From: Oidiodendron maius Zn
Taxonomy: Eukaryota; Ascomycota; Leotiomycetes; Myxotrichaceae
Reading direction: 5' to 3'
DNA: 64,000 nt
Assembly: GCA_000827325.1 (NCBI GenBank)
Contig: KN832887.1
Location: 806,001 to 870,000 of the forward strand
The position numbers were made by a program, and so were the translations under genes. Positions within the stretch are counted from its first letter, which is position 1. Each line of letters opens with the position of its first letter. Positions 6,394-59,355 of this stretch are shown here, piece after piece. Under the pieces are notes generated by a model that was not told the origin of the DNA, searched no databases, and worked only from the letters and a program-made list of their open reading frames with translations.

Positions 6394-8185
6394 ATGGAGA
6401 AGAATATATCATTAACAAAAGATTTCATTGGTGATCCAGTAGCATCTCATCACGAGCTTTTGGAAGATCAAGGTAGACCCCAGCACCGAGTTCATGAGGA
6501 TGAAGCCAATTATCGCATGAGTAAAACAGAGAGACGCGTCTTGATGAAACAGGATATGGTTATTGTGCCACTCCTGGCTTTCATATTCTTTACTGAGTAT
6601 CTGGTAGTCCACACTGCAGACATGTCTAGGACGTTCTTGGCTGACCGCAGTGGATAGGACCGTGCTGTGATTGGAAATGCTCGAGCTCTGGGCATGCAGA
6701 AAGATATCAAACTAAGCAACCAGCAGTATTTCAGTGCTGCCAGCGTTTTCTGTATAGCCCTCTGTTTCATATATATTTCTTTCCATTTTAGATCATCCTA
6801 ACTCTTCTTTAGATGTCGGCTTCATGAGTCTAGAGCTTGTCGCTGCCATTTGTATTTGTTATATCCCACCTTGTTATGTTTTTGGGGCCTCACTCATAAC
6901 ATTTGGGGCATGTGCTGCACTCTTAGCACCAGCTAAGAGCTATGCTTGGGTGATTATCCTACGTTTAATGATTGGCGTTGCCGAAGCTTTCGGCCAGGTC
7001 GCATACCTCTACGTGACTCTCTGGTACAAGCCAAACGAACGAGCATCTAGGACAGGCAAGTCTACCAGCGATCCGCATGCTTTATGGATAAAAGAGTCAT
7101 TAATTCTTTGCTTAGCTGCTGTCTATTCATTGACACCACTTGCAGGAGCCATGAATGGCCTCATTTCGTGGGGTGCTCGCAAAAATTTAGCCGGCCTGAA
7201 TGGCCTACTTTCTTGGCAGTGGCTCTATGTTATTGAAGGCATTGTCACGGTTTCACTAGGGGTCGTAGTCATGATATTTCTCCCTAATATGCCGGATGTG
7301 GTAGCGGCAAAGGGAAGCTGGCTGTTTAGGCATGAAGATGAGCGACAACTTCTTTTAGAGAGACAGAAGGCAGGTGAGTGCAGACTGAAGCTTAATGGAG
7401 TATATTAAGGCTATCTTGCCAATTAATCGTGCTATATTGCTGACGCCATATGATGTCTTGTAGGGCAAAATTCCAAAAATGCGAAACCCAGCATGCATCA
7501 GGTCGTTATGGCACTTAAGGATCCCAAAATCTACTTGGGTGCCTTTATGGTCGGGGCACAAGGTATAGGAATTGGCGCCTTTTCCGTCTTCCTCCCTACA
7601 TTCATACTTGAGTTTGGCTTCTCTGAGCTAGATACACAGCTCTACTCTATGGTTCCGTATGCATTTGCACTCGTGACGATGCTCTCCCTCTCATATGCAG
7701 GTGATCTTCTTGCCAAAAGGGGCATTATGACTTTGGCCTGTCTGTCTACAACAATTATTGGGTTTGTAATTTTAATGTCTACAACGAATAATGTGGCTCT
7801 TTTGGCTGGGGCTTGCTTTGTCGCGGCTGGTTCTTATCCAGGCACGGTTATCGGAATCTCTTGGGCGCTTTCTTTTCACGGCGGCTATACAAAACGATCT
7901 TGCGCGGCATGGTTCATGTCCATTTCCGTAAACGCCCAAGCCATTATCGCCTCACAGGTATATCGGAAACCGCCTCGTTATCGTGTAGGCCATGGTGTTG
8001 CGCTGGGGAGCTACATTCTTGCCACAATTTGTACTCTCACTCTGATTTATCTCCTTTCAAGAGCAAATAAGGCCAAAGATCAACGAGCCACAAACTTTGC
8101 GGTAAGACAGGAGATAGATCCGGATATGGCAGAGGATTACGAGCGTCTTGGAGACTATCATCCGGGATTCAGGTATATGCTCTAG
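6394..8185 (+). CDS. MFS permease, anion:cation symporter (allantoate/nicotinate-type) family
   Basis: Five exons are inferred: 6394-6603, 6658-6751, 6813-7055, 7116-7373 and 7464-8185, giving 508 residues with about 12 membrane segments. Intron 1 (6604-6657) removes an in-frame stop and restores the FTEYLDRAVIGNARALGM motif typical of the ACS family (Dal5/Tna1-like). The third intron (7056-7115) appears to be of the GC-AG class, with donor GCAAGT; removing it gives NERASRTAAVYSLTPLAGAM, which fits the family, and its 60-nt length keeps the frame either way. The conserved loop LFRHEDERQLLLERQ and the second-half GISWALSFHGGYTKR motif are present. The family imports organic anions such as allantoate, nicotinate or pantothenate across the plasma membrane; this substrate is unknown. 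Its neighbours suggest uptake or export for the local pathway. It looks intact, although the YRKPPRY segment is slightly shorter than usual. Confidence 0.88.
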
Positions 8186-8520
8186 TGGATGGCGATGGCG
8201 GCCTAAGCTTCTGTTAGAGTGTCACTATGTTTGGGGTCGGCACCGATGAATGATACCGGCCAGCATCTCTCCACGTACAACTAGTCCTGTGTTTAGTTGA
8301 ACATTTTCCCTATGCTTTTATATTCCCGCTGCTACTTTAATGCCCACAAAATAAACTCTACAAAATTTCAAAGTGAAGTGATGCTCTCTTCTTGCCGCTC
8401 TTAAGTACTCTCCACGTGCAGACTTGACATTCACTGTCTTACTCTTCTCAAGATAACATGCTTCAGTTATTTGCATTTTCACAAGAATATGCTGTCATTT
8501 TACAGTTCTTGAGTCGCTCG
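8186..8520. other. Intergenic 3' flank of transporter
   Basis: No gene or clear element is seen between the transporter stop and the exon-like frame on the minus strand at 8521-8685. Confidence 0.5.
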
Positions 8521-8685
8521 TCAATCGCGCACAACTAAACGAACGGCCTTAAGCATCGGAGTCTCGACCAAAGCCGGAGTTGCGTCGCTTAGGACGAAAA
8601 TGTCCATCACTTCATTCAAAGGCCGGCCGATGTTGAGTTCGTAATCCGCAGGCCCGCTATTGTTATTGTAAAATCGGCCCAATTT
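8521..8685 (-). pseudogene. Exon-like fragment of unknown protein, cut off near the LTR element
   Basis: A 54-residue open frame ends with a stop at 8521. It has coding-like composition, including NIGRPLNEVMDIFVLSD and ALVETPMLKAVRLVVRD. It is preceded on its own strand by a plausible acceptor (CGTAG at about 8686-8690) and, 66 nt further back, by a donor-like GTAACT at 8751. No joined upstream exon keeps the frame cleanly. Only about 100 bp remain before the Copia insertion at 8780. I infer that it is the last exon of a gene whose 5' part is lost or decayed. The family is not recognised. It could also be a chance frame. Confidence 0.35.
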
Positions 8686-8774
8686 CTACGACGTAGGGTG
8701 AGGAAAGCATATTTAATAGATAAGTTCATGACATCAGCCAGGTAAAGTTACTTATTGCAGCCATAGCCGGCACT

Positions 8775-8779
8775 ATATC
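8775..8779. repeat. Target-site duplication (left), ATATC
   Basis: The five bases ATATC directly precede the left LTR and recur directly after the right LTR at 14857-14861. This marks the insertion boundaries. Confidence 0.8.
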
Positions 8780-8982
8780 TGTCGGTATATCCTTGAGGAT
8801 ATACTAGTAGTTGCCTTGGTGGCAAGGCAACTGCCCTCATCAGCCGAATTAGGGGTAAATCCATCCCGGCTAGCGATTGAATATATTTATATAGGATCAC
8901 GCTGTATTAGAACCTTAGACTGAATATAACCTTTATTTTAAACCCTTTGAATACATTGCTTTACCTGATAGGTAAAGCTATA
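8780..8982 (+). repeat. Left LTR of Copia element
   Basis: This LTR is 203 bp and aligns without gaps to the right LTR at 14654-14856. About 13 positions differ, all of them transitions. It begins with TG. Confidence 0.88.
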
Positions 8983-11900
8983 CTGATCAGTTTTGATTCA
9001 GATCAGCTATACTTACCTAGAAGAAGAAGATATATTTGATTAGATCGATAGTAGTTCTGTTATAATTGCGGTGGCTATTCGACTGCTTGACTATTCGAGT
9101 CTCTGTCTTATCAACAGAAGCAGCTTATCAGCTTTCTGTTACAATTGCAGTGGCTATTAGCTAGACAGCTACTCTGAGGTTTTGTATTCCCCTCTTCCGT
9201 TATAATTGCAGTAGCCATTGAGGATATATTTGACCTGTATATGCTATCTACATACGATCCTTGACCTTTACTAGTCAGAATCAACCTCTTGACCTTTGCT
9301 AGTTGAATCAAAACTATCAAATCTATCGAATCTATCGAATATTCAACTAAAGACACTTCGATCTAGTCAATCAGACCACTCACTTACCTTCCTTATAAGG
9401 ATATAGACCCACAAGCAGAGTAACTGACTCAGTTCACTTACTTGCCTTCCTTACTTGGATACGGAATACTGAGCAGAGCATCTAAAAGGCTAAAATATAC
9501 AGGATAGAGGATTAAGGCAATATAGAGGATACAGCAGAAGGCAGTAACCAACAAGGAGGATCACCTGGTATTTGACCTGAAGACTAGTAGCTAAATAAAG
9601 TGATACAGCTACCAGCAACTACAGAAGACTTCAATGAATTCGTTGTATAGCGATATATAGAATACCTTCAACTGGCTCTTACTAGCGGCAGCCTCTCCTA
9701 GCTATATAATAAGAACTTCCAGAACTTTACTATAGATATATTCAGACAAGTACGACTAAGCCTTCTGAACAAGCTATACGACTGCCTCCGAATATAAGGT
9801 GTTTATATGGATAACTTAAGGAATGTAGATAAAGCAGAAGCCTTAATAGCAGCTGTAAAAGATGAATTACCTTGGCCAGAAGGTGATCCTGAAGCTCTAA
9901 ACAAGAAGACTCCTTCGAATCAAACTCAAAACCCTCCTGCTTGATTCTAAAGCCTTCAGATCTGCTTTATAATCCCTCCCCAGATAAATACTTGATCTTA
10001 TAGACTACAAGGACCTTGAGCACCTGCTTTCGGATTGACTAGGTCAGTCAGATATCTATTACTTAGTGGATATAAGTTAGTGTTGGGATAACAACAAGAG
10101 CCTCGATAAGACCCTTAACTAGAGAATCAACCTGATATCTATAATACTAGCCCTCCTATAAGCCTAACAAGACTATATCTACTAATATAGCCTTGAATTC
10201 CCTAAGATCCGATACTCCAGATACCTTGAATCCAGACTCCCTAGATTGAAGAACCCTAGCCTGACTTTAGTTAATAGATAGCCAACCTGGCTAAGATATA
10301 TACTAAGGAGGATTGATATTCAGGATAACCTGATGATAGCTTTGACTTTAAATTTGGTATATTCCTTGATAACTATATAAAAGCTGGTGTCTCTAGAGAA
10401 GCTTAGAGCTTAGCCTTCTTAATGATACTTAGTGGTCTAGCTAAGGACTACTACTATAAGGTATATCGACAAAAAGGCTACAATATCAACTAGCTTTGTA
10501 AGGCTATTAGCAAGAGATTCGAAACTAGTGAACAAGGCTGTCTAAATATACTTAAATGGGAGACTCTTTCATTGAGTACTATAATCAGGGAGAATCCGGG
10601 TAAGACTACAGCTTAATGCCTTGATATCTTGATCAAGCAGATAACAACAATCTAGCGTAACCTTCCAACTGTATATTATAATGACAAGATTGCCTGTAAC
10701 AAGCTTATCAATATATGTCGAACTAATAAAGCCTGTTGCTTTGTATGTTATAAGGCTAGTAATACTTTTACGGGTATTATTAGTGATTTGTAGTCATTAA
10801 TTGCTATATTTAAGCAGTCTAAGCCTCTGAATGCTTATATTACGGATCCGCTAGACCCTGATCCTGATCCTGAACTAGATCCTGATATGTATTATGTTGA
10901 CCGTTAGTATTGTGGACCTTCTCGACTACCTCTCTCTTGATTTAGACCTAGACGATAGTCTTATATACCATTAAAGGATCGAAAATACCGCTAGCCTTGA
11001 GACTATACTAAGAAGTGCTTAGTCTGTCAGAAAGCTGGCTGTTGGTCAACCAATTATATGCCTTTAGAGTGTAAGGAAGCTGCAAGTAAGCTGAGATAGC
11101 GTTTTGACCAAGCAGATAAGAGCTTTCAGTAATATATAGCTGAACTGGAGGATATAGATAATATGGACGATCTTCAAGAAGCTTTTGAAGCCTTGATTAT
11201 AGATGATACTTAGCCAAATTCAAATAATCCTGATTCTATAACCTATCTTATAACATATAGGATAGTAAATACAGAGCAGGCTTAATAGATGGTTGATATA
11301 CTAGCCAATCAAACCTTTGAGTATACTTTGACCAACACTACTGCTTATAGAATTGATTAATCAGAGCAGCCATTAACCTACTTGACTTGGTATTCAGATA
11401 ACCACTTTGCTGGTATAATGATCGATATAGGTGTAGTATAGATCTCTATAGCTGGAAAGAACCAGTATCAAGCTTACTTAAAAGCATTCAACCTTGATAT
11501 CCTGGATACTACAACCGCTGGATTAACCTTAGTCTGTTTTGGTATTAGTACTACTACTTCAATTGGGTCAGTTACGCTTAATATGCCTATTGGATTAGCT
11601 GTATTCTATATAGTTGATGCAGATACCCCTTTCCTTCTTTGTCTTCAGGACCTTGATAAGATAGGAGTATATTACAATAATCTTACGGATCAGATTGTCT
11701 ATCCAGGAGGATCTTACCTAGTTATCCGTAATTACGGACATCCCTTTATTATATGGGGAAACCCTGCAGTCAGCTACCTTATAGAGCCTGAATTACACTA
11801 GCTATACTGTTGATTCGGATATCTAACTGTAGAACGCCTCTATTCAATCTTGAATCAGGCTGGATATAATAATCCCTAGTATCTCAGCTTGATCCAGAAG

Positions 11901-14653
11901 CTTACTAAATACTGTTCCCTTTACCAGAAGAGCAGCCAGGCTCCCTGACGATTCAAATTCACACTCTATAACAATAATATTACTTTTAATTATACTATAT
12001 ATGTTGATATGCTATATATCAACGGATTACTAGTCCTCTATATTGTTGATGAAGCTATATGCTTCCAGGCTGCCAGATGGCTTGAAAACATAATAGCTTA
12101 ATATATATGGGATATGCTTCGATTTTGCTGGATTGATACCTATTTAGGATCCCCAGATCTGATAGTTTATGATACAGGAACTAACTTTATAGCTACTGAG
12201 TTCCAGCAGAACGTCCAGATCCTGAGTATTCGAACTAAAGCAGTTCCTACTGAAGCAGTATAATCAATAGGAATTATAGAACAATATTATATACCTTTAT
12301 ATCGTGTGTATAAAGTGATATCAGAGGAATTAGCGGGTATAACTGTAGGCAAAGCTATCCTTTTACAACTCTCAGTCAAGGCAGTTAATGATATAATAGG
12401 ACCTGATGGACTAGTGCCTACTCTACTAGTATTTAGCTTATATCCTTGATTATCCGAATCTGACCCTCCTTCCCCTTTAATTACCTAGAGAGTAGCTACT
12501 ATCAAGAAAGCTACTCAAGAACTCTTGAAGCTACAGGCAAATTGATAAGTTACAGATACTCTGCAATAGCGCAATGGCCTACAAGTCGATAATATATATG
12601 ATTTGGAGGCTGGATTAGAGGTATTGGTTTGGAGGATTTACAAGAAGGTATAGAACGGACTATATAAGCTCTTGATAATTGAGGGGGAGATAGCTATAGT
12701 GGAAATTAACGGACGATCTACCTAGTTTAGAACTACGGTTATAAAGCTGTATTTACGGGAACTACTAGCTTTAGAGCCAGTAATCTAACCAGACAAACCT
12801 ATAGCCGGAACCCTGCTGCTAGAAGGATCAATTTAACCAGCAACTCAGCTACCTATCTAGCTAGCTACCTAGCCAGCTATCCAGCTGGACAATACCCTCC
12901 TAGAAGATACTATTGTAGTGGAAGATCCTGGCCAATCAGAGCCTTTATAAAGACCTTAAGGTCGCCTACAGAAGCAACCTCGACTTGACTCTTTTACAGC
13001 TGATATTAGGATCCGAATCCCCGATCCCGATCTCCAGAACACCTGGCTTAGTGGTAGTAGCAAACCTTTTAAGTAGTCTTGCTAGAAGGAATTGAATGGC
13101 TTATTTAAATATAGTGTCTTCGAAATCGTCGACTATATCCTACCTAATAGTTAAGTCTTTAAGACTAGGTTTATAGATAAAGTTAAGTATACAGGTACTG
13201 AAAAAGCCTTTGAAAAATCCTGACTAGTCGTTCAGGGATATAGTGATAGCAGCAAGGATAAGATCCTTATATAGGCCCCTATAATCTAGCAGGCTAGTCA
13301 GCGGATACTCTTAAGTCTTGTATCTTTTCTTTATACCTAGGATATAAAGCTATATCTTCAGGATATTTCTTAAGCTTATATATAGTCTTAGATACAGCTG
13401 ACTAGAGATATCTATCTCAAACCACCTACTAAACTAGCTCTTTAGTCAAAGTTTTTATGGCTTGTCCAATCTCTTTATGGATTAGCTGAATCAGGCATTT
13501 ACTAGTATAATATATACTACAAACACTATATCGAGAAGCTTGATATAGAAGACTTAACCTTTGATCCTTGTCTCTTGATTGAGAAGTATAGTAATAGAGT
13601 CATTAGTATACAGACTGACGATATACTGCTACTAGCTAATACTGCCCTGGCTAATAAGGAAGAAGCAGCCTTGACCTTTTCTTTAAAGCCTTGCTAGGAG
13701 TTACTGATTACATCACCTATTCTTTTTAATAGTGCAGTTATTCAGCTTCATGATATAGACAACTTAATTACAATCAGCTAGACCTGTCAAATCTTAAAGA
13801 TCAAATTGGCTAAAGACTACAACTCTTATATTACCTAGCGTGCTTGTAGGGCCTATATTGCAACTGTATTACAGCTAGAGCGGGCCTTTAGATACTCCTT
13901 TACTGTATAGATAACTAATTTGACTATTATAGACAAACAGATTGTTTTTCTGAATAAACAGCTGTCCTGGCAACTTAATTACCTGGAGAGAGGACTACGC
14001 TTTGTCCCCCTTGACCTGCAGACCCTTTGTGTAGCAGTCTTTACGGACTCTTCTTTTGCAAACAACCACGATATATCTTCCCAGATTGGATATATGGTTA
14101 TTACGGTGGATAAGGACAACAGGGCGAATATAATCTACTGGAGTTTAGTCAAATATAAGCGTATTACCTGAAGCGTCTTAGCAGCTGAGCTATATACTAT
14201 GTCTTTAGGTTTCGATAATGCAGCAGTAATCAAATCAACGATTCAGCAGATCCTATAACAACCAATCGACCTTACGATTTATATTGACTCGAAATCCCTT
14301 TACGATTGTCTTGTATAACTTGGAACAATATACAAGAAGCGTTTGATGATCGATATAATATGCCTACAATAAGCCTACGAGTGTAGAGAGATATTACAAG
14401 TGGTGTAGATCGATGGGAAGCATAATATCGCTAATGCTATGACAAAGGAGAAGCCTGGTAACAGCCTTAAGACCCTTATTGATTCGAATCGGCTTGATAT
14501 AACGGACGGAACAATTGGCTGGGTGGATCAGGTAGATATACAAATAGATACAGGTGATAAAAGAGGAAGTTTACGGGCTCAAGACGACTAAGTTATGTCT
14601 AAATCCGAGGACTAGTCTCTGGGGTAAAACCTCTTTCTTTTAGGTTTGCCCAG

Positions 14654-33109: not shown

Positions 33110-35405
33110 TCAACCTAAAATCAAAGACACCTCTTCCAGGTCTAATTCTTCCCACCCTGCCTTCTCAACATGTCCACCAGCAAGACGGCATGCAACTTGC
33201 TCCTTCCACTCCACCCATAACACTTGATACCTCTCCTCTATGGTCAAGGGATAGGTGTACCGTTCTTGCGTCTTATCCCAAGTCTTGGAATATATGGTTG
33301 ATCGGTAGATAGCAACCAATTCAATTAGCTTCCCTTGCGCACCACTTGCTACTGTCTTTGGAAAGAGTTCTAGCTGTTCCTGGTTGTGCAGATGCAGTAC
33401 TCCGATCCTACGACCTGATTCGTTATGAAGTTCCAAATTGTTCCCATCTCCAGCTTGATGGGCCCATAGACGAGCCTTGCTCGTTTTACAAAAGATATAT
33501 GGCGTTTGCTCAGGTGTGAACGGCAGGGTGGTGTCTTGGATATTTGGGACCGGGAATGGATAGTACCAGGAGTCACAGTCCTTGTCAGGCATGTTGGGAT
33601 GCTTGAAAATGTCGCCACTGCATCCAGAGGGGTAAAGAAGCGGTTCCCATTTCATCAAGTCCTCCGGGGGAACCTTGTGGCGGGTCCAGCCCGCCGGTAA
33701 AGGATTAGTCAAGCTCTTGAAGGCGTCGCGCTTCTCAAACCAAGTAGACCTGATCCTTCGTAATGGAGAGCCGCTCGGAGCACTACTGGTAAACCATTCA
33801 GTTATTGGGGTTGTCTCCTCTATCCAGTGCTTCCGGTAGTTAATACGAGCGGCTTCATCACCAATTGATACCAGACCTTGCCATCCAATCCACGACCAGG
33901 ATGGCAAAGCTGAGTATGATAATCGTCTGCCGCTAGAGCTGGACGATACAATTCGTCGTCGGAGGTTAGTGTGACTCCAGCAGGGTTTCCAGCCCAGCCC
34001 TCGCTCAAATAACATTTCCGGGAGTCCGTACAGAAACCCGTTAGTAAATGTGCGACTAGCTACCGAAAGAAGCCCTGAGATACCAGGGAGAGCGTCCTCG
34101 TCGTAACGGAGGTTTCGCTCATTATAGCGTGCGATGATATGGCTGAGGGATCCCATGTCTGGAAATCCGGCCAAAAGGACGCCCATCCGCGGGTCGATGT
34201 ACTTGTCGAGCTCAGTCCCAGGGATCATTTCTTCATGCCAGACACTACATTGACACTCCCAGTGCAGTTCCTTCTGATTAAAAATGATTTTTCTTGTAGA
34301 CATCTTATACTCTTGGTATGTCCAGCCACGATCGTAATAGGGAGTACCAGAATCCATATCAAAAATACCGGTATTCCGGACAATGATTCTCTCTTCGCCA
34401 AATGGAATAATCCGTTGTTCCAGCTTTCGAGGACTAGAGACATTCCTTAGACCTAGAAGCCCGTCCTGAGAGTCCCCGTCTGCTGCAATAATAGTAACGA
34501 TGGCACTTGCGTAAATAGCGCTCATAAGTTGCAGCTGTTCTGTTGTAGTTGCATTGTCGCTATGATCGATGCAGAGCGCATCTACCCAAAGATAACGCTC
34601 GCCAATGACGGAGGTCAAGTGCATAGAGTGGTAAATAATTGGGGGCAGACGGGATGAAATCTCCGGGCTATCTAGAGCATTGGGCATGCGGAGCTTTTTC
34701 ATTATGTCGGCATCAATTCTGAACCCCAAATGATCTCCCTGTCTGTAACTGAGGGCCACAAAAGGGCTGCAACCTTCGCCTGGAACGAGGCATTTGTTCT
34801 TGATATCAATGAGAAAAGCAGGTGATGTCGGCCAGATCTTCATAGGGTTGTTGCATTTCGCGCCATGTGAAGACAGGCACTGGTTCTTCCACTGATTGGC
34901 AATGCCAATATCAACCCAATCGGGATCTAAAACACGCCCAGTCCCAGCGTGACCGGGAACAGAAGCTTGCTTAACGAGTAGGAGGTTCCAGAATAGGCCC
35001 AGTGTCGACAGTGATTGCGTTAAAGTGACACTCGATCCCTTCCCCCCCGCCTCTATACCTATATCATGAGATTTATCGATCGTACTATGCATACAGGGGC
35101 GGCAAAAATCTCCGAAACTCTCCACCAACGGTCTATGCCTAGGACATCCGGAAGATATCACGTCTTCCAAGGACCCTAAATTGAGTTGATGGGTAGCATC
35201 GGAGTCTGTGAATCGATGCCAGATGTCATGACAAACTTTGCAATCTGAGAATTTATCTGCAATAGCCTTTTGGTTGGGAGCCTTGTCCTCCAATTTTTTT
35301 TGCGAATATCTGGCTTTTCGATCAGAAACGCTAACTAGTCAAATTGATTGCGCGAGTTTTAAGCCAGTTAGATTTAAATATTTAACCAGTGCGTTTGGTT
35401 CGCAT
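33110..35405 (-). CDS. HET-domain protein (heterokaryon-incompatibility type)
   Basis: The main exon (35334-33110) encodes over 740 residues. The HET domain (PF06985) spans about residues 215-385: PFVALSYRQGDHL, LPPIIYHSMHLTSVIGERYL, WVDALCIDHSD, MSAIYASAIVTIIAADGDSQ and later DRGWTYQEYKMSTRKIIF. An N-terminal Cys-rich segment (CKVCHDIWHRF, CPRHRPL, CRPC) precedes it, as in the long class of HET proteins. The open frame itself starts without ATG. I propose a 19-nt first exon at 35405-35387 (ATG, then five codons and one base) joined by a 52-nt intron (35386-35335) with a TCTAAC branch site, giving 747 residues. HET domains trigger cell death when non-self partners meet; the trigger here is unknown. 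It looks intact. Confidence 0.85.
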
Positions 35406-37351: not shown

Positions 37352-39046
37352 CTATAAGTCCGCACCACACGTAGTCGAAATTGTTACAGTATATAATAGC
37401 CACATCAGGCTCTCATTCACTTCCAAACTTATTTTGACCATCTTAGCCCCTACAGATATCGTGGCACTCGAAGGTTCTATAGTATGGCCTCGTGACTCTG
37501 GTAATGAGCCCCGCACGAGGGATCCGTCGTGCTCATCACAAACCTCCAGCCCCAGCCTCCGAAATCGCCAGCGGTCAGATTTCTCGATATTACCTTCACT
37601 GCTCTCTGACGCAATAAAAGAGTTTGAGATACGCAAGTTGAAGCAAGACCGCATATCCGCAGTGTCCAAAAACCGTAAGACTGATTGTTGTGTGTCATAT
37701 GATACATCTGGATGAAGCATAAGTGAATTGTCAGTTGGTCTCCAATCACATCTGTGTAATTTAACAGGATGAACCTCAAAACCAATCGCATCAACTAAGA
37801 CAAGCTTGTCCCTTATGGCCGGGGGCAGCACCTCGCGATATGATGGTAGGTCCGTCAGGTAAACCTTTGAGACTTTCGCTTGGGACACTAATCGCGCAGG
37901 TACCATCACTGATGGGTATCCTTTCGGACAAGAGATGCGGTTGTAGGTACGCTCCAACGAGTTCCCTGATAAAAGCAGCCCAGGGCATTCGAACAAGTTC
38001 CCTGGACGCGTGAAGGACAAAACGGCAATTGCGAGATCATGTCTTTGCGGGGTACCTTCTTCATCCGCGATGATGTACCAGTCTGCTTTCTCGACAAGCA
38101 TCAGCTCAACTTTGAATCCGCGATTTGTGTGAACCCAGGCCTTGCTGCGGTCCCTCAAGGTGGCGATAGATTCCAAGACAAGCTGATTTGAAAAACACTT
38201 TGGAGATTGCGCCAAGATATCTTGTCGTTTGATGGACCGTGGGAAAATGCTCCACAAATCCGGCCCGGTTGAAATGCAGTTTTTAAAGCTTATCCCCCAT
38301 GCTAATAGGGAACTCGAGGATGTTCGTTTGACTAGCTCATGCTGCAGTCGCTTAAAGGCCTTGAACTCCCCCTCTCCATAATGCAGAGGCATATGGACAT
38401 CAAGTATGCCCATCAAGCAGTATGCGATATCTTCCGCCTTAGTTGTCTGTCTGTCCTCGACCCATGATATACGAGTGAAATATGGTTGGCGCCTAACCTC
38501 CAAATAATTAAGTATGCAATTGACTCCGATGCCCGTGATGGAGGATATTATGGGACAGCACGATTCCTTGTCTCCGATTAGTCTCCAATTGGAGTCGTAG
38601 AACATCACCTTGTGGGGCGCGAGAAGCTCTTGAAGAGTCCAGCCCCGTTTGAACCATTTGCTTCCCCGGATAACGAGCTTCCCAAGATCATCGTTAACTT
38701 CCAGATGAACGTCCGATAGATATACGTAGCAGACTTTTGCCTCTTGGTACCATCGAAACATAGAATTTATAGCCTCTTGAAGCTCGACACTGTTGGTTTT
38801 GTCGATGCAACAGGTGTCCACCCAGAAGTATTCTAACCGATCGCGTCTGGCTTGTTCTCCGCAGAATCGAATCTTCTCGTATCCAATCTTGTTCTTCCCA
38901 GTGCCATCTGTCACATCTCTGTATGTGACCTCTTCTATATCCGCCCCCCACATGTGCGAAAGGATGGCATAGTCAGGAATATCGGCGCTAAACAGGTCCT
39001 TGGTAAGGCTAAACTCGCATTCGTTGTTGCACTGTAGGAGGCGCAT
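37352..39046 (-). CDS. HET-domain protein, HET-D/E-like N-terminus
   Basis: A single-exon gene of 564 residues. It begins MRLLQCNNECEFSLTKDLF and contains the short-class HET domain of the HET-D/HET-E type: YAILSHMWGADIEEVTYRDV, YFWVDTCCIDKTNSVELQEA, INSMFRWYQEAKVCYVYLSD, SKWFKRGWTLQELLAPHKVM and AYCLMGILDVHMPLHYGEGE. In known proteins this N-terminus is fused to NACHT-WD40. Here it is followed instead by about 300 residues without a recognisable NTPase or repeat domain. It is clearly a relative of the HET part of the NLR at 56008, sharing INSMFRWYQ and the phrase order. The role is inferred to be a cell-death effector or sensor in non-self recognition. No damage is seen. Confidence 0.88.
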   Translation of the reverse strand: MRLLQCNNECEFSLTKDLFSADIPDYAILSHMWGADIEEVTYRDVTDGTGKNKIGYEKIRFCGEQARRDRLEYFWVDTCCIDKTNSVELQEAINSMFRWYQEAKVCYVYLSDVHLEVNDDLGKLVIRGSKWFKRGWTLQELLAPHKVMFYDSNWRLIGDKESCCPIISSITGIGVNCILNYLEVRRQPYFTRISWVEDRQTTKAEDIAYCLMGILDVHMPLHYGEGEFKAFKRLQHELVKRTSSSSLLAWGISFKNCISTGPDLWSIFPRSIKRQDILAQSPKCFSNQLVLESIATLRDRSKAWVHTNRGFKVELMLVEKADWYIIADEEGTPQRHDLAIAVLSFTRPGNLFECPGLLLSGNSLERTYNRISCPKGYPSVMVPARLVSQAKVSKVYLTDLPSYREVLPPAIRDKLVLVDAIGFEVHPVKLHRCDWRPTDNSLMLHPDVSYDTQQSVLRFLDTADMRSCFNLRISNSFIASESSEGNIEKSDRWRFRRLGLEVCDEHDGSLVRGSLPESRGHTIEPSSATISVGAKMVKISLEVNESLMWLLYTVTISTTCGADL

Positions 39047-40458
39047 TGATTTAGACAGGATCTGATAGGATCTCTAAACGACAAAATACTAGTGAATAGT
39101 TGTTGCAGGGTCGATATGTATGCACTTGTTAAGAGGGGGAGTACTGTTCGGGTCGAGGTTGTGTTCATACAGCTCAGCTGGACGGTAGCCTCGCGGCATA
39201 GTGTCATTGTGCACTATCGCACGAGCGCGCCAGATCAGCCAGTCGTGGCCAGCCACTGCAGAGACTAACCTTATGGCGGCTGTTCGGACCATTCGAGCGA
39301 GGCGCCATGCATGGTTTTCGATGCATCACTGAGGGCGCATGCGCAGTTAGAACTCTTAGTTGGTGGCTACTAATGGAAAATCCTAGAAGAACGCCACATT
39401 TTATATAAATTTGGTATAATATACAGCATAATACGGCTAGCTTCCCTGTTAATACAGTATGACATGATATAAGCGTGGTAACTCGCTTGGCGTTTAGTCT
39501 CCCCTCTGTCCGGATAAACTCGGCATGCAGGTTTCCTTGTGCTCTAATTGTTCAAAACTTGGAGTCATATTCTTTCCTGATAGTACCTTTTTGCTGTAGC
39601 CCCAAAATTTAGAGACAGGCAGATAGTCATGATAGAGTAGGGGGTAATACCTAAAGCAGCTTTTGACGCTCTCAGCGGGACGATTGATAGAATAGCTAAA
39701 CTACAGTATTTTTCTAAATACAAGTCAAGCCCTTGTAGAGAAATAGCTAAAGAACAATTATAAATATATTGTAGCTTTATATATTTATGTGGTGGAGATT
39801 TAAGACACTTAAACTATAAATTATTTTCGGCACACCGGTTTTTCGCCATGCAGGGATAGACGTTACCCCTCTTTCCTGCCATCCTGCATATATATACTAG
39901 TCAAACTTACAGTAATATTCAAAATCAGTTTCAGTCTAAACTCTCTATGTTTTTATAATTGACCGGGAGTCATCATTTGTACTAGTAATGATACGGCTAG
40001 CAACATGGTACCCACTGGTGCCCATGCACAACCTGCTTGGCACATAACACGTGAGAGGTACACACAGTTACTACCAGCAACCTCAAGGAGCGTGGCTTAG
40101 CTAATAAGTTTTTATGCCAAAGCTATCTTTACTGGCCTGAGGCACTTACTCTCCTAAGAGGTCTATCAAGTGGTATTGTCATGAATAAGAATCTCGAGAA
40201 TAAGCTTAAAGTAAAACTCTTCACGATATCTTCTTGAACAGAGGCAATATAGGTGCACAGGTCGTAGTCAGGAATCAAGGTGAAACTCAGTTATATTGGC
40301 TATTGAGTGATGCAGAGACAACTGAGGGGTTTAGACTACAGAATACAACGCTTATTATATGCCTGCTTATGTGGCAATATGCGTAAGCCATTACGACTAT
40401 ACAGTCGTATGCTATTGCGTATATTGCCACTACTTCTGAGACATCGTGACATATGTGC
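39047..40458. other. Intergenic, AT-rich, decayed
   Basis: No gene is supported. The region contains an imperfect 60-bp palindrome at 40371-40430. Its last part may hold further decayed sequence of the NACHT-WD40 relic that starts near 40459. Confidence 0.5.
40371..40430. repeat. Imperfect 60-bp palindrome
   Basis: GTGGCAATAT at the left end is matched by ATATTGCCAC at the right end, and the centre contains ACGACT-ATAC-AGTCGT. Several mismatches lie between. It could be a small inverted-repeat element or a hairpin. Confidence 0.6.
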
Positions 40459-56007: not shown

Positions 56008-59000
56008 ATGCGTCTTCTGAGAATCAATAGTGATGGCAACTTCAGCCTGACTAGGTTTCTTCCCGGCGAGATTCCTCCTTACGCTATCCTCTCGCATACA
56101 TGGGAGACGGACAACCAGGAACTTACCTTTCAGGACATGGTGAATGGAGCCGGGAGAAACAAGGCTGGTTATAGAAAAATCCAGTTTTGCGGAGACCAAG
56201 CAAAGAAGGACGACCTACAATACTTCTGGGTGGACAGTTGTTGCATCGACAAAGCTAGCAGCGCCGAGCTTTCAGAGGCTATCAATTCTATGTTTCGCTG
56301 GTATCAGGATGCAGTCAAATGCTATGTTTATCTCTCAGATCTGTCAACCAGTGATGTCATATCCTTGGTGTCCTCCCGGCTTCCAGGTTGTTCACCCTTC
56401 AGTCGGAGCAAGTGGTTTACCCGAGGTTGGACACTTCAAGAGCTTCTGGCACCATCGTCAGTCGAGTTCTTCTCCAAAGAGGGCGACTGGCTCGGTGACA
56501 AGGGGACCTTAGAATTGCACATCAGTGATATCACTGGTATCGCAGTTAAGGCTCTTCAGGGAACTCCCATGTCCTATTTCAGCCTTGATGAACGAATATC
56601 ATGGGCGACCGACCGACAGACTACAATTGAAGAGGATCAAGCGTATTGTTTGCTGGGAATTTTCGAAGTACATATACCGCTCATTTATGGAGAAGGAAGG
56701 ACGAATGCCTTTCGTCGCCTTCAAGAGGTCGCCAAATTCACTTCTAAGCCCAAGCCCTTCTCGACCGTCCCGTTCGCCCCCGACCCTGGCTTCGTCAACC
56801 GGCCTGAATTCTTAGCGTGGATTCACGACAAGTGCGCGGGACCAGGAGCTCGGGCGGCGCTCGTCGGCCTTGGCGGTGTAGGGTTTGTCACCGTCCGCTT
56901 CCGTAATATCACAGTGCTAACGTGACACAGAAAGTCGCAGTTGGCTATCCGATACTCCCACGATGTCCGTGATGCGTCGCCGCAAACGTTCGTGTTCTGG
57001 GTGCATGCCAGTACCCAGGCCAGGTTCGAAGAAGCGTACAGACATATTGCCGACAGGCTTGAACTTCCGGGACGAGATAATCCGAAAATCGACGTTTTGC
57101 GGCTCGTTTATGACTGGCTGTGCAATGATACAAATGGAAAGTGGATCATGGTCCTAGATAATGTCGACGATATCGAGACTTTTTTTTCACTAAACCGCAC
57201 GCAGGATAAGCTGTCCGGAAGCCCGCCAGCATCGCTGGCAGGTTACCTTCCCCAGAGCCGTAACGGATCGATCTTGATTACGTCTCGGAACAAGGATGTG
57301 GCAACCAAGCTGGCAGGAGGTTACAACAGCATCAAGGAGGTTCGTGCAATGGACGAAAGCCAAGGTCTGCAGCTCCTTCGGAACAAGCTGCAGGACAGGT
57401 CGACCGAAGACGGCGCGGTTGATCTGCTGCGTGCTCTCGACTACATACCTCTCGCAATTACCCAGGCCGCTGCATACATCAACCGGCGAGCTCGAATGAC
57501 GATTTCCGGATACCTTGACGAATTTCGCAGAAACGACAAGAAGAAAGAAAATCTCCTGAATCGAGATGCAGGCGATCTCCGTAGGGATGACAGCGCATTG
57601 AACTCAGTGGTGACGACATGGCAGATATCGTTCGAGCGTATTCGTGAAGAAAGACCTTCTGCTGCAGACTTGTTGTCGCTCATGAGCTTCTTCAATCCCC
57701 AAGGAATTCCAGAGTCTATACTTCGAAGGCACAGCAGGAGAGGGGCAAAGCCGGATGATGAAGACGAGGCTGAGAGCGCGTTTGAAGAGGACTTCGACAC
57801 GCTGTTGGCGTATTCCCTAATAGTAGTGACGGCCGACACCCATGTGTGTGAGATGCATGCTCTCGTGCAATTCTGCACACGAGTCTGGCTTTCCTCGATC
57901 GGTGATACGGAGCAGTGGAGACGGAAATTTTTGGCATTAATGGCAGCCGAGTTCCCTCTTGGGGAGTTTAAGAACTGGGCGAAATGCCAGCAACTGCTTC
58001 CACATGTGGAGTGCTTGTTCCACCAGGAGCCGACCGAGGAAGAATCACTGAGAAAGTGGGCCCAAGTACTTACGAATGCTGCATGGTACATGTGGACGAA
58101 GGGTAAATACAGTGCAGCTCGGGACGCCGCAATTAAAGCAGTAACAACTAAAGAGCAGATACTGGGGCACGACCATCATTCCACGCTTGCAAGCGTTGAA
58201 ATCTTGGGGTTAGTGTTGCAGCACCTAGGGAAATACGACGAGGCAGAGAAGATGAACCGGCGAGCACTGGAAGGGTACGAAAAGACGCTTGGGAGAGAGC
58301 ATGACTACACGCTTAAAAGCATGGGCAGAATGGCGGAAGTGCTGCGGCACCAGGGAAAGTACGAAGAAGCAGAGAAGATGAGTCAGCAAGCATTTGAAGG
58401 TAGCGAGAAGGTACTGGGGAAGGAGCATTTGACTACGCTTACAAGCTTGAATAACCTAGCGTTAGCGTTAGAGGCCCAAGGAAAGTTTAAAGAGGCGGAA
58501 AATATGTACCTGCGAGCACTAGATGGATATGAGAAGGCGTTGGGAAAGGAGCACCCGGACACGCTCATACTTGCGAACAACCTAGCTTTAGTGCTAATGG
58601 ACCAAGCAAAGTATGAGAAGGCAGAAGGCATAGCTCGTCAAGCACTGGGAAGGAGGGACAAGGTACTGGGAAAAGACCATCCAGATACACTAAACAGTGT
58701 ATCTATCTTGGCGGAAGTGCTGGATTGCCAAGGAAAGCACGACGAGGCAAAGAAGATGAGTTGGCAAGCACTAGAAGGGAAGGAAAAGGTGCTGGGGAAG
58801 GAACACCCGCTCACGCTTACAAGCGTGAGCAACCTAGCTGTGGTGTTGCATAACCTGGGGAACCTTGACGAAGCAGAGAAGATGAATCGGCGAGCGCTTG
58901 ACGGGAGAGAAAAGGTGCTTGGGAAAAAGCACCCTGACACACTAGTAAGCGTGAGCAATCTGGCGTCACTGCTACATGACATGAGGAATTATAGTGAGGC

Positions 59001-59355
59001 AGAGAAGATGTATCGGCGAGTATTAGACAGCCAGGAGAAAGTGCTTGGGAAAGAGCACGTTCTGACTCTGATGAGCATGAATAATCTGGCGTTAGTGCTA
59101 CTGGACCATGGGAACTATGGTGAGGCAGAGAAGATCTGTCGCAGAGCACTAGATGGCATGGTGAAAGTCCTAGGCAAAGAACATCCTTCTACGCTGACGG
59201 TCCAGAACAACCTGACTCAGTGCTGCAGTACGGATCAGGGAAATAATAAAGAGCCAGCGAGCAATAGCCATAAAAGTAAGCAAGGCTCACGTTATATGCA
59301 CGCGCTTGAAGTCAAAGATATGGAGAAAAGAGTCGCAGCATATAACTTAGGTTAG
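56008..59355 (+). CDS. HET-NB-ARC-TPR NLR-type protein
   Basis: Two exons are inferred, 56008-56882 and 56931-59355, giving 1099 residues. Domain order: HET (about residues 26-170; YAILSHTWETDNQELTFQD, YFWVDSCCIDKASSAELSEA, KWFTRGWTLQELLAPSSVEF); the HET tail YCLLGIFEVHIPLIYGEGR near residue 215; and NB-ARC with Walker A GLGGVGKSQLA (about 287-297, completed across the intron), Walker B KWIMVLDNVDD, the sensor-like GSILITSRNKDVA and the GLPL-like LDYIPLAITQAAAYI. A linker follows, then a TPR array of nine near-regular 42-residue modules (about 660-1055) of the kinesin-light-chain type, with repeated AEKMNRRALDGREKVLGKEH-like phrases. Such NLRs sense a ligand through the repeats, oligomerise through the NTPase and signal through HET to kill the cell; this is known for the class and inferred here. 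The ATG at 56008 matches the start of the related HET gene at 39046. It looks intact. Confidence 0.93.
58159..59200 (+). repeat. 126-bp coding repeats (TPR modules) in the NLR gene
   Basis: The phrase LG-x-x-H-x-x-TL recurs nine times at 42-codon spacing (for example at about 58160, 58286 and 58412), so the DNA holds a near-regular 126-bp array. Units are diverged at third positions but strongly alike in protein. Variable residues cluster in the first helix of each unit. Confidence 0.85.

What the first reader, a model, noticed from the sequence alone, without database searches (positions are those of the whole stretch)
56008..59355. Complete HET-NB-ARC-TPR NLR with a regular, homogeneous 42-residue repeat array
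Seen: an intact 1099-residue frame with HET, Walker A/B, GLPL-like motif and nine TPR modules of equal length with very similar sequence. Established: fungal NLRs with highly alike repeats evolve by repeat shuffling and positive selection at a few repeat positions. Inference: this is a live, fast-evolving recognition gene and the best candidate immune-type receptor in the window.
Basis: partly seen in the sequence, partly recalled or inferred. Interest (0 to 1): 0.7.

Follow-up and report, generated by a model that had tools for sequence, protein, structure and literature searches.

The report
Fungal immune receptor with aged repeats
This is an intact fungal relative of plant and animal immune receptors, but its sensor repeats turn out to be old and diverged rather than freshly shuffled, so it looks like an ordinary member of a large gene family and not the fast-evolving receptor it was taken for.

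Summary
The gene is real: 56008-56882 plus 56931-59355, a 48-nt intron, 1099 codons, HET, NB-ARC, DUF7779 and a 42-residue TPR array. The spacing is regular; the homogeneity is not there. The eight full units average 54% amino-acid identity (best pair 64%) and 64% nucleotide identity (best 71%), with synonymous distances of 0.72-1.87 or not computable. The published mark of a highly conserved array is 85% (Dyrka 2014). Among 46 arrays of this family that I held from the same genome with at least four stop-free units, it ranks 41st by mean identity and 45th by best DNA pair; 34 of 46 hold a pair at or above 85%. So: an intact receptor with a long-individualised sensor, not a live repeat shuffler. 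Its variable positions match the concave ligand face of TPRs. Side result: the intron splits the Walker A motif at the same place in 11 of 38 testable loci, which fall on one side of a tree branch yet carry at least three, probably four, kinds of effector domain. New member of a known kind.

The parts
56008..56882 (+). exon 1: HET domain, linker and first part of the Walker A motif
   Evidence: same start in five related HET frames
56080..56352 (+). HET domain core (residues 25-115, Pfam PF06985 positions 1-92 of 146)
56761..56882 (+). linker STVPFAPDPGFVNR... to GLGGVG, similar in intron-bearing paralogues whatever their effector
   Evidence: print, read by eye
56883..56930 (+). 48-nt phase-2 intron between GGVG and K of Walker A; if retained, the frame stops after FVTVRFRNITVLT
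56931..59355 (+). exon 2: rest of NB-ARC, DUF7779, TPR array, tail and stop
56857..57411 (+). NB-ARC match (residues 284-452; span includes the intron)
57646..57888 (+). DUF7779 match (residues 531-611), where the winged-helix/ARC2 region is expected (recalled)
58060..58182 (+). diverged first TPR-like unit (residues 669-709)
   Evidence: helices in model
58183..59190 (+). eight 42-residue TPR units (residues 710-1045)
   Evidence: model mean pLDDT 89.7
59191..59352 (+). half TPR unit and low-confidence tail
   Evidence: pLDDT under 50 at model residues 401-431 and 433-440

Best explanation
A single-copy, apparently intact HET/NB-ARC/TPR receptor of a filamentous fungus. Inferred mechanism: a peptide or protein ligand binds the concave groove of the TPR solenoid, the NB-ARC switch exchanges nucleotide and oligomerises, and the N-terminal HET domains are brought together and trigger regulated cell death. 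The groove was diversified long ago; the array now shows net constraint and no sign of current homogenisation by repeat exchange, unlike most of the family arrays examined. Shown here: the architecture, the intact motifs, the age of the repeats, the position of the variable residues. Inferred: ligand binding, switching, cell death, expression.
For: Domains. Open frame and splice signals. Unit identities, dN and dS. Rank among 46 arrays: 41 by mean aa and by mean nt, 45 by best nt pair, 44 by best aa pair and by nearest-unit identity. Of the 10 DNA matches returned for the array, the best beside itself is 66% over 533 bases, the most alike 77% over 79 bases; the nearest NB-ARC is 51%, so no recent duplicate was seen. 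Confident solenoid model, matching APPBP2 bound to a degron (8jal, TM by query 0.75 and 0.82 for two chains) and KLC1 with cargo peptides. Variable positions 3, 6, 10, 13, 14 equal TPR positions 2, 5, 9, 12, 13 (the shift of one is my register). Entropy in the focal array is 2.27 bits at the eight most variable positions of the close pairs (the focal array has no such pair) against 0.81 at the other 34; rank correlation with the 47 other arrays that have stop-free units is 0.73. HET is reported sufficient for fungal cell death (PMC10197012, passage).
Against: No expression, strain or ligand data. The HET motif reads SHTWE where the five closely related HET sequences read W-G, so the effector could be weakened. 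HET matches Pfam only over 92 of 146 positions; its five relatives are partial too, 88-100 positions. Six of eight focal units have their nearest relative inside the array, at 67-71% nt, so some homogenisation happened in the past. The HET model failed (mean pLDDT 37).
Confidence: 0.77

Rival explanations
1. Live hypervariable receptor: the array is now being reshuffled by unequal exchange, under positive selection at groove positions.
For: Regular 42-aa spacing; variable residues lie at groove positions; other loci of the same genome look like this (34 of 46 arrays with a pair at 85% aa or more); published for Podospora (PMC4986451).
Against: Best unit pair only 71% nt; dS 0.72-1.87 or not computable; dN below dS in 23 of 23 computable pairs. 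Rank 41-45 of 46.
Confidence: 0.08
2. Decaying or silent receptor: an intact frame by chance of age only, with the W-E change in HET and the half-unit C-terminus as early damage.
For: SHTWE against W-G in five related HET sequences; no recent homogenisation; a broken paralogue exists (L021, 26 stops).
Against: 1099 codons without a stop, clean splice sites, intact GLGGVGKS; eight TPR positions invariant across the eight units while their codons vary.
Confidence: 0.12
3. Not a self/non-self receptor but a constitutive TPR adaptor or housekeeping STAND protein, which would explain the lack of repeat turnover.
For: Slow, constrained array; KLC/APPBP2-like fold.
Against: HET effector; large dispersed family (52 loci merged); dN/dS contrast at groove positions in the family.
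Confidence: 0.08

Closest known systems
Fungal NLRs of the HET/NB-ARC/TPR architecture (Dyrka et al. 2014, PMC4986451, passages; a Botrytis HET/NB-ARC/TPR protein is in its table)
   Same: Domain order, TPR sensor, effector swapping over a shared nucleotide-binding domain
   Different: Array not highly internally conserved (54% against their 85% cut-off); in that paper most TPR arrays (all but 21.2%) are not either
Podospora NB-ARC/TPR genes such as Pa_2_10340, with repeat number polymorphism (PMC4986451, section 17)
   Same: TPR sensor; variable residues on the concave side
   Different: Those were chosen for over 85% repeat conservation; this one has none
HET-D/HET-E/HET-R (HET-NACHT-WD40) of Podospora (PMC12222747, passages)
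   Same: HET effector, STAND switch, repeat sensor
   Different: NACHT and WD40 there, NB-ARC and TPR here; repeats over 80% alike there
Kinesin light chain and APPBP2 TPR domains (PDB 6swu, 8jal)
   Same: TPR solenoid that binds short peptides
   Different: Not part of a receptor; 18-36% identity in the Foldseek rows listed

Membership tests
Fungal NLR (NOD-like receptor) | N-terminal effector domain | tested here: met
   HET, 47.7 bits over a 22.5 cut-off
Fungal NLR (NOD-like receptor) | NB-ARC or NACHT nucleotide-binding domain with intact P-loop | tested here: met
   NB-ARC 31.8 bits over 23.5; GLGGVGKS after splicing
Fungal NLR (NOD-like receptor) | C-terminal superstructure-forming repeats | tested here: met
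   nine TPR_10 stretches, solenoid model mean pLDDT 89.7
Fungal NLR (NOD-like receptor) | ligand-triggered oligomerisation and cell death | not testable with these tools
   none
NLR with high internal conservation (HIC) | repeats at least 85% identical over at least 100 aa | tested here: not met
   0 of 28 pairs at 85%, best 64%
NLR with high internal conservation (HIC) | repeat number polymorphism among isolates | not testable with these tools
   one genome only
NLR with high internal conservation (HIC) | positive selection at groove codons | tested here: inconclusive
   focal units too diverged; in close pairs of 28 other arrays dN/dS is 1.07 (0.85-1.29) at eight positions and 0.25 (0.21-0.32) at the rest, so not above 1
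Het (allorecognition) gene | allelic difference that triggers incompatibility | not testable with these tools
   none

The most novel reading that the evidence does not exclude
The intron that cuts Walker A between GGVG and K marks one lineage of NB-ARC/TPR receptors in which effector domains are exchanged upstream while the split P-loop is kept; keeping or removing the intron could act as a safety switch, since the unspliced message would encode the effector and linker alone, cut off from the switch domain, in all 11 copies examined.
Probability: 0.06. Interest if true: 0.6.

Novelty: new member of a known kind. Interest (0 to 1): 0.24.

Why it matters
It removes a false lead and shows where better ones are: 34 of 46 arrays in this genome hold at least one unit pair at 85% or more, among them the HET relatives L011, L012 and L016. 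It also shows that one genome holds both states of the same receptor type, homogenised and individualised, so the question why some arrays leave concerted evolution can be tested. The P-loop intron gives a marker for tracing effector swaps, and a gene caller that misses it would report a broken or 'noncanonical' P-loop (inference).

Tried and rejected
Repeat shuffling at this locus: rejected. Recent duplication of the whole gene: not seen, nearest NB-ARC 51%, nearest array DNA 66%. Intron as the breakpoint of effector swaps: rejected, because the linker upstream of the intron is shared by loci with different effectors (L011 HET and L015 SesB-like, NB-ARC 76% identical). Intron retention leading to a stop in 11 of 11 is not striking: eight introns shift the frame anyway, and an in-frame intron of 45-54 bases would hold a stop about half the time (my estimate). 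Positive selection above 1 at the groove: not shown; the intervals include 1 in all three identity bins. Bacterial relatives: seven loci only, 23-29% identity, mostly to the TPR part. HET fold and a TIR comparison: model at pLDDT 37, not searched further. Bacterial-type promoter scan: one hit against 1.1 expected, and the wrong promoter type for a fungus. Organism: left unnamed; I did not try to match a marker.

Limits of the census: one search scored 56 of 191 candidates, so the family is larger than the 52 loci I merged from its rows. Some loci were held only in part. Three of 52 loci gave no array of four units (L029, L033, L058); three of 49 arrays were dropped for stops (L021, L036, L064); several arrays contain gaps and may join two blocks, L012 among them. 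Fourteen of 52 loci had no NB-ARC start to test for the intron, most because that part was not held or not matched.

Full report
Gene model. The frame runs from ATG 56008 to stop 59355 with an intron at 56883-56930; joined, it gives 1099 residues. Donor GTTTGT, branch CTAAC and acceptor CAG fit fungal introns (consensus recalled). Pfam finds HET, NB-ARC, DUF7779 and nine TPR_10 stretches. Walker B (MVLDNVDD), a GLPL-like IPLA and an MHD-like MHALVQ are seen by eye in the translation; those names are recalled. The start MRLL...LT is shared with four paralogue HET frames and with a HET-only gene in the window.

The repeats. Eight units of exactly 42 residues lie at 58183-59190. Pairwise identity averages 54% in protein (range 40-64) and 64% in DNA (range 55-71). 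By the NG86 count dN is 0.24-0.54 over 28 pairs and dS 0.72-1.87 in 23 of them; in five pairs dS could not be computed. Tandem Repeats Finder sees only two partial stretches. Dyrka et al. 2014 (PMC4986451; passages, section 17) call repeats highly conserved above 85% identity over at least 100 residues and report this for 21.2% of TPR repeats in fungal NLRs. The focal array misses that by a wide margin; by the same figure most published TPR arrays do too.

The genome as a control. The window lies in a 45.9-Mb, 58-contig genome with at least 150 HET matches (150 of 481 candidates scored). A search with exon 2 gave 107 match rows from 56 of 191 candidates scored, which I merged into 52 loci. Of these, 49 gave arrays of four or more units, 425 units in all. 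By mean protein identity the focal array is 44th of 49; with stop-bearing units removed and three arrays lost, 41st of 46, and 45th of 46 by its best DNA pair. Medians over the 46 are 0.63 for mean protein identity and 0.92 for the best DNA pair. Thirty-four of 46 arrays hold at least one pair at 85% protein identity and 28 of 46 a pair at 90% DNA identity. Of 411 stop-free units, 341 have their nearest relative (DNA) in their own array; for the focal gene it is 6 of 8, at only 67-71% identity. So most arrays examined show recent exchange and this one does not. Because its units are so unlike, the assembly is unlikely to have collapsed them (inference).

Where the variation lies. In 171 close unit pairs from 41 arrays (DNA identity 80% or more; the focal array has none) the eight positions with most non-synonymous change are 3, 6, 10, 13, 14, 25, 32 and 42. 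In the 73 pairs at 90% or more, from 28 arrays, these have dN/dS 1.07 (bootstrap 0.85-1.29, dS over all positions) and the other 34 have 0.25 (0.21-0.32). At 80-90% identity the figures are 0.97 and 0.25, at 93% or more 1.06 (0.59-1.70) and 0.24. The positions were picked from overlapping data; in a split-half check the top six chosen on one half gave a median of 0.99 (0.73-1.25) in the other. Nothing here is significantly above 1. Magliery and Regan 2005 (PMC1261162, passages; authors' names recalled) give TPR positions 2, 5, 9, 12, 13, 33 and 34 as the variable concave face; five of my eight are the first five of these shifted by one. The focal array follows the same pattern: entropy 2.27 against 0.81 bits, rank correlation 0.73 with the pooled other arrays. 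That supports an old binding groove, not current positive selection.

Structure. The TPR region (residues 660-1099, in a six-sequence alignment with five bacterial loci) folds with mean pLDDT 89.7 into regular helix pairs. Foldseek ranks APPBP2 (8jal) first, TM 0.75 and 0.82 by query for two chains, and KLC1 with peptide next. A sequence search also lists 4y6c, titled a putative kinesin light chain of P. anserina. The HET model failed (pLDDT 37).

The split P-loop. The intron falls between GGVG and K. Of 52 loci, 38 have an NB-ARC start that could be read; 11 have an intron at this place and phase and 27 read through (for L016 a second donor six bases on was also possible). The 11 are one side of a branch in the NB-ARC tree, support 87/86, found so in 86% of 200 bootstrap trees, one change against 9.8 by shuffling; whether the intron was gained there or lost elsewhere is open, since the root is only a midpoint. 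They are also the 11 best NB-ARC matches, the gene itself included. Their effectors differ: HET in five (focal, L011, L012, L016, L058), SesA in L010, patatin in L014. L015 shows a GHSLG hydrolase motif (SesB-like, recalled; no Pfam match to the two pieces sent). L013, L019 and L021 got no assignment from the pieces sent. L011 (HET) and L015 are 76% identical in NB-ARC and, read by eye, alike from QKTPLS onward but not before, so the swap boundary is at the start of the linker, upstream of the intron. Effector exchange over a shared NOD is known.

Is the split P-loop in print? Two literature searches aimed at it listed no such report (11 papers, all listed, 10 of 30 listed); I saw the listings. 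In Dyrka 2014 the word intron does not occur in the main text held; splicing is mentioned there only for Tuber microexons, and noncanonical P-loops are mentioned. In the Sordariales study PMC12258605 both uses of intron concern gene-model correction. This is weak evidence of absence. The library is open-access only.

Conclusion. The gene is an ordinary, apparently intact NLR-type receptor. Its regular spacing is real; its homogeneity, and with it the reason for calling it fast-evolving, is not.

Noticed in passing
window 37355-39073 (-): HET-only protein whose HET region is 54% identical (252 aligned residues) to that of the focal receptor, 17 kb away on the other strand.
   Followed up: partly
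window 33113-35338 (-): A second, distant HET protein of 742 aa (80.8 bits); two free HET genes and one HET receptor within about 26 kb.
   Followed up: no
L012, L016, L061, L059, L042: Arrays whose best unit pairs are 92-97% alike in DNA: better candidates for live repeat exchange than the focal gene.
   Followed up: partly
L021 (G000:C31:169030-171243): Broken paralogue with 26 stops; an upstream frame reads a G/N-rich stretch (RGIQIGINNGPI) that resembles an amyloid signalling motif (recalled, untested).
   Followed up: no
L010:4100-4771 (-): SesA domain followed by a G/Q/N-rich tail that looks like a sigma-type motif (recalled, untested), upstream of a separate frame with the NB-ARC linker.
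   Followed up: no
L038, L013, L035, L016: TPR blocks in two reading frames separated by 380-542 bases: introns, diverged units or frame changes inside the array.
   Followed up: no
window 8001-14000: Dip in G+C to 0.37 with TA/AT dinucleotide ratio up to 1.34, a possible mark of repeat-induced point mutation (index recalled).
   Followed up: no
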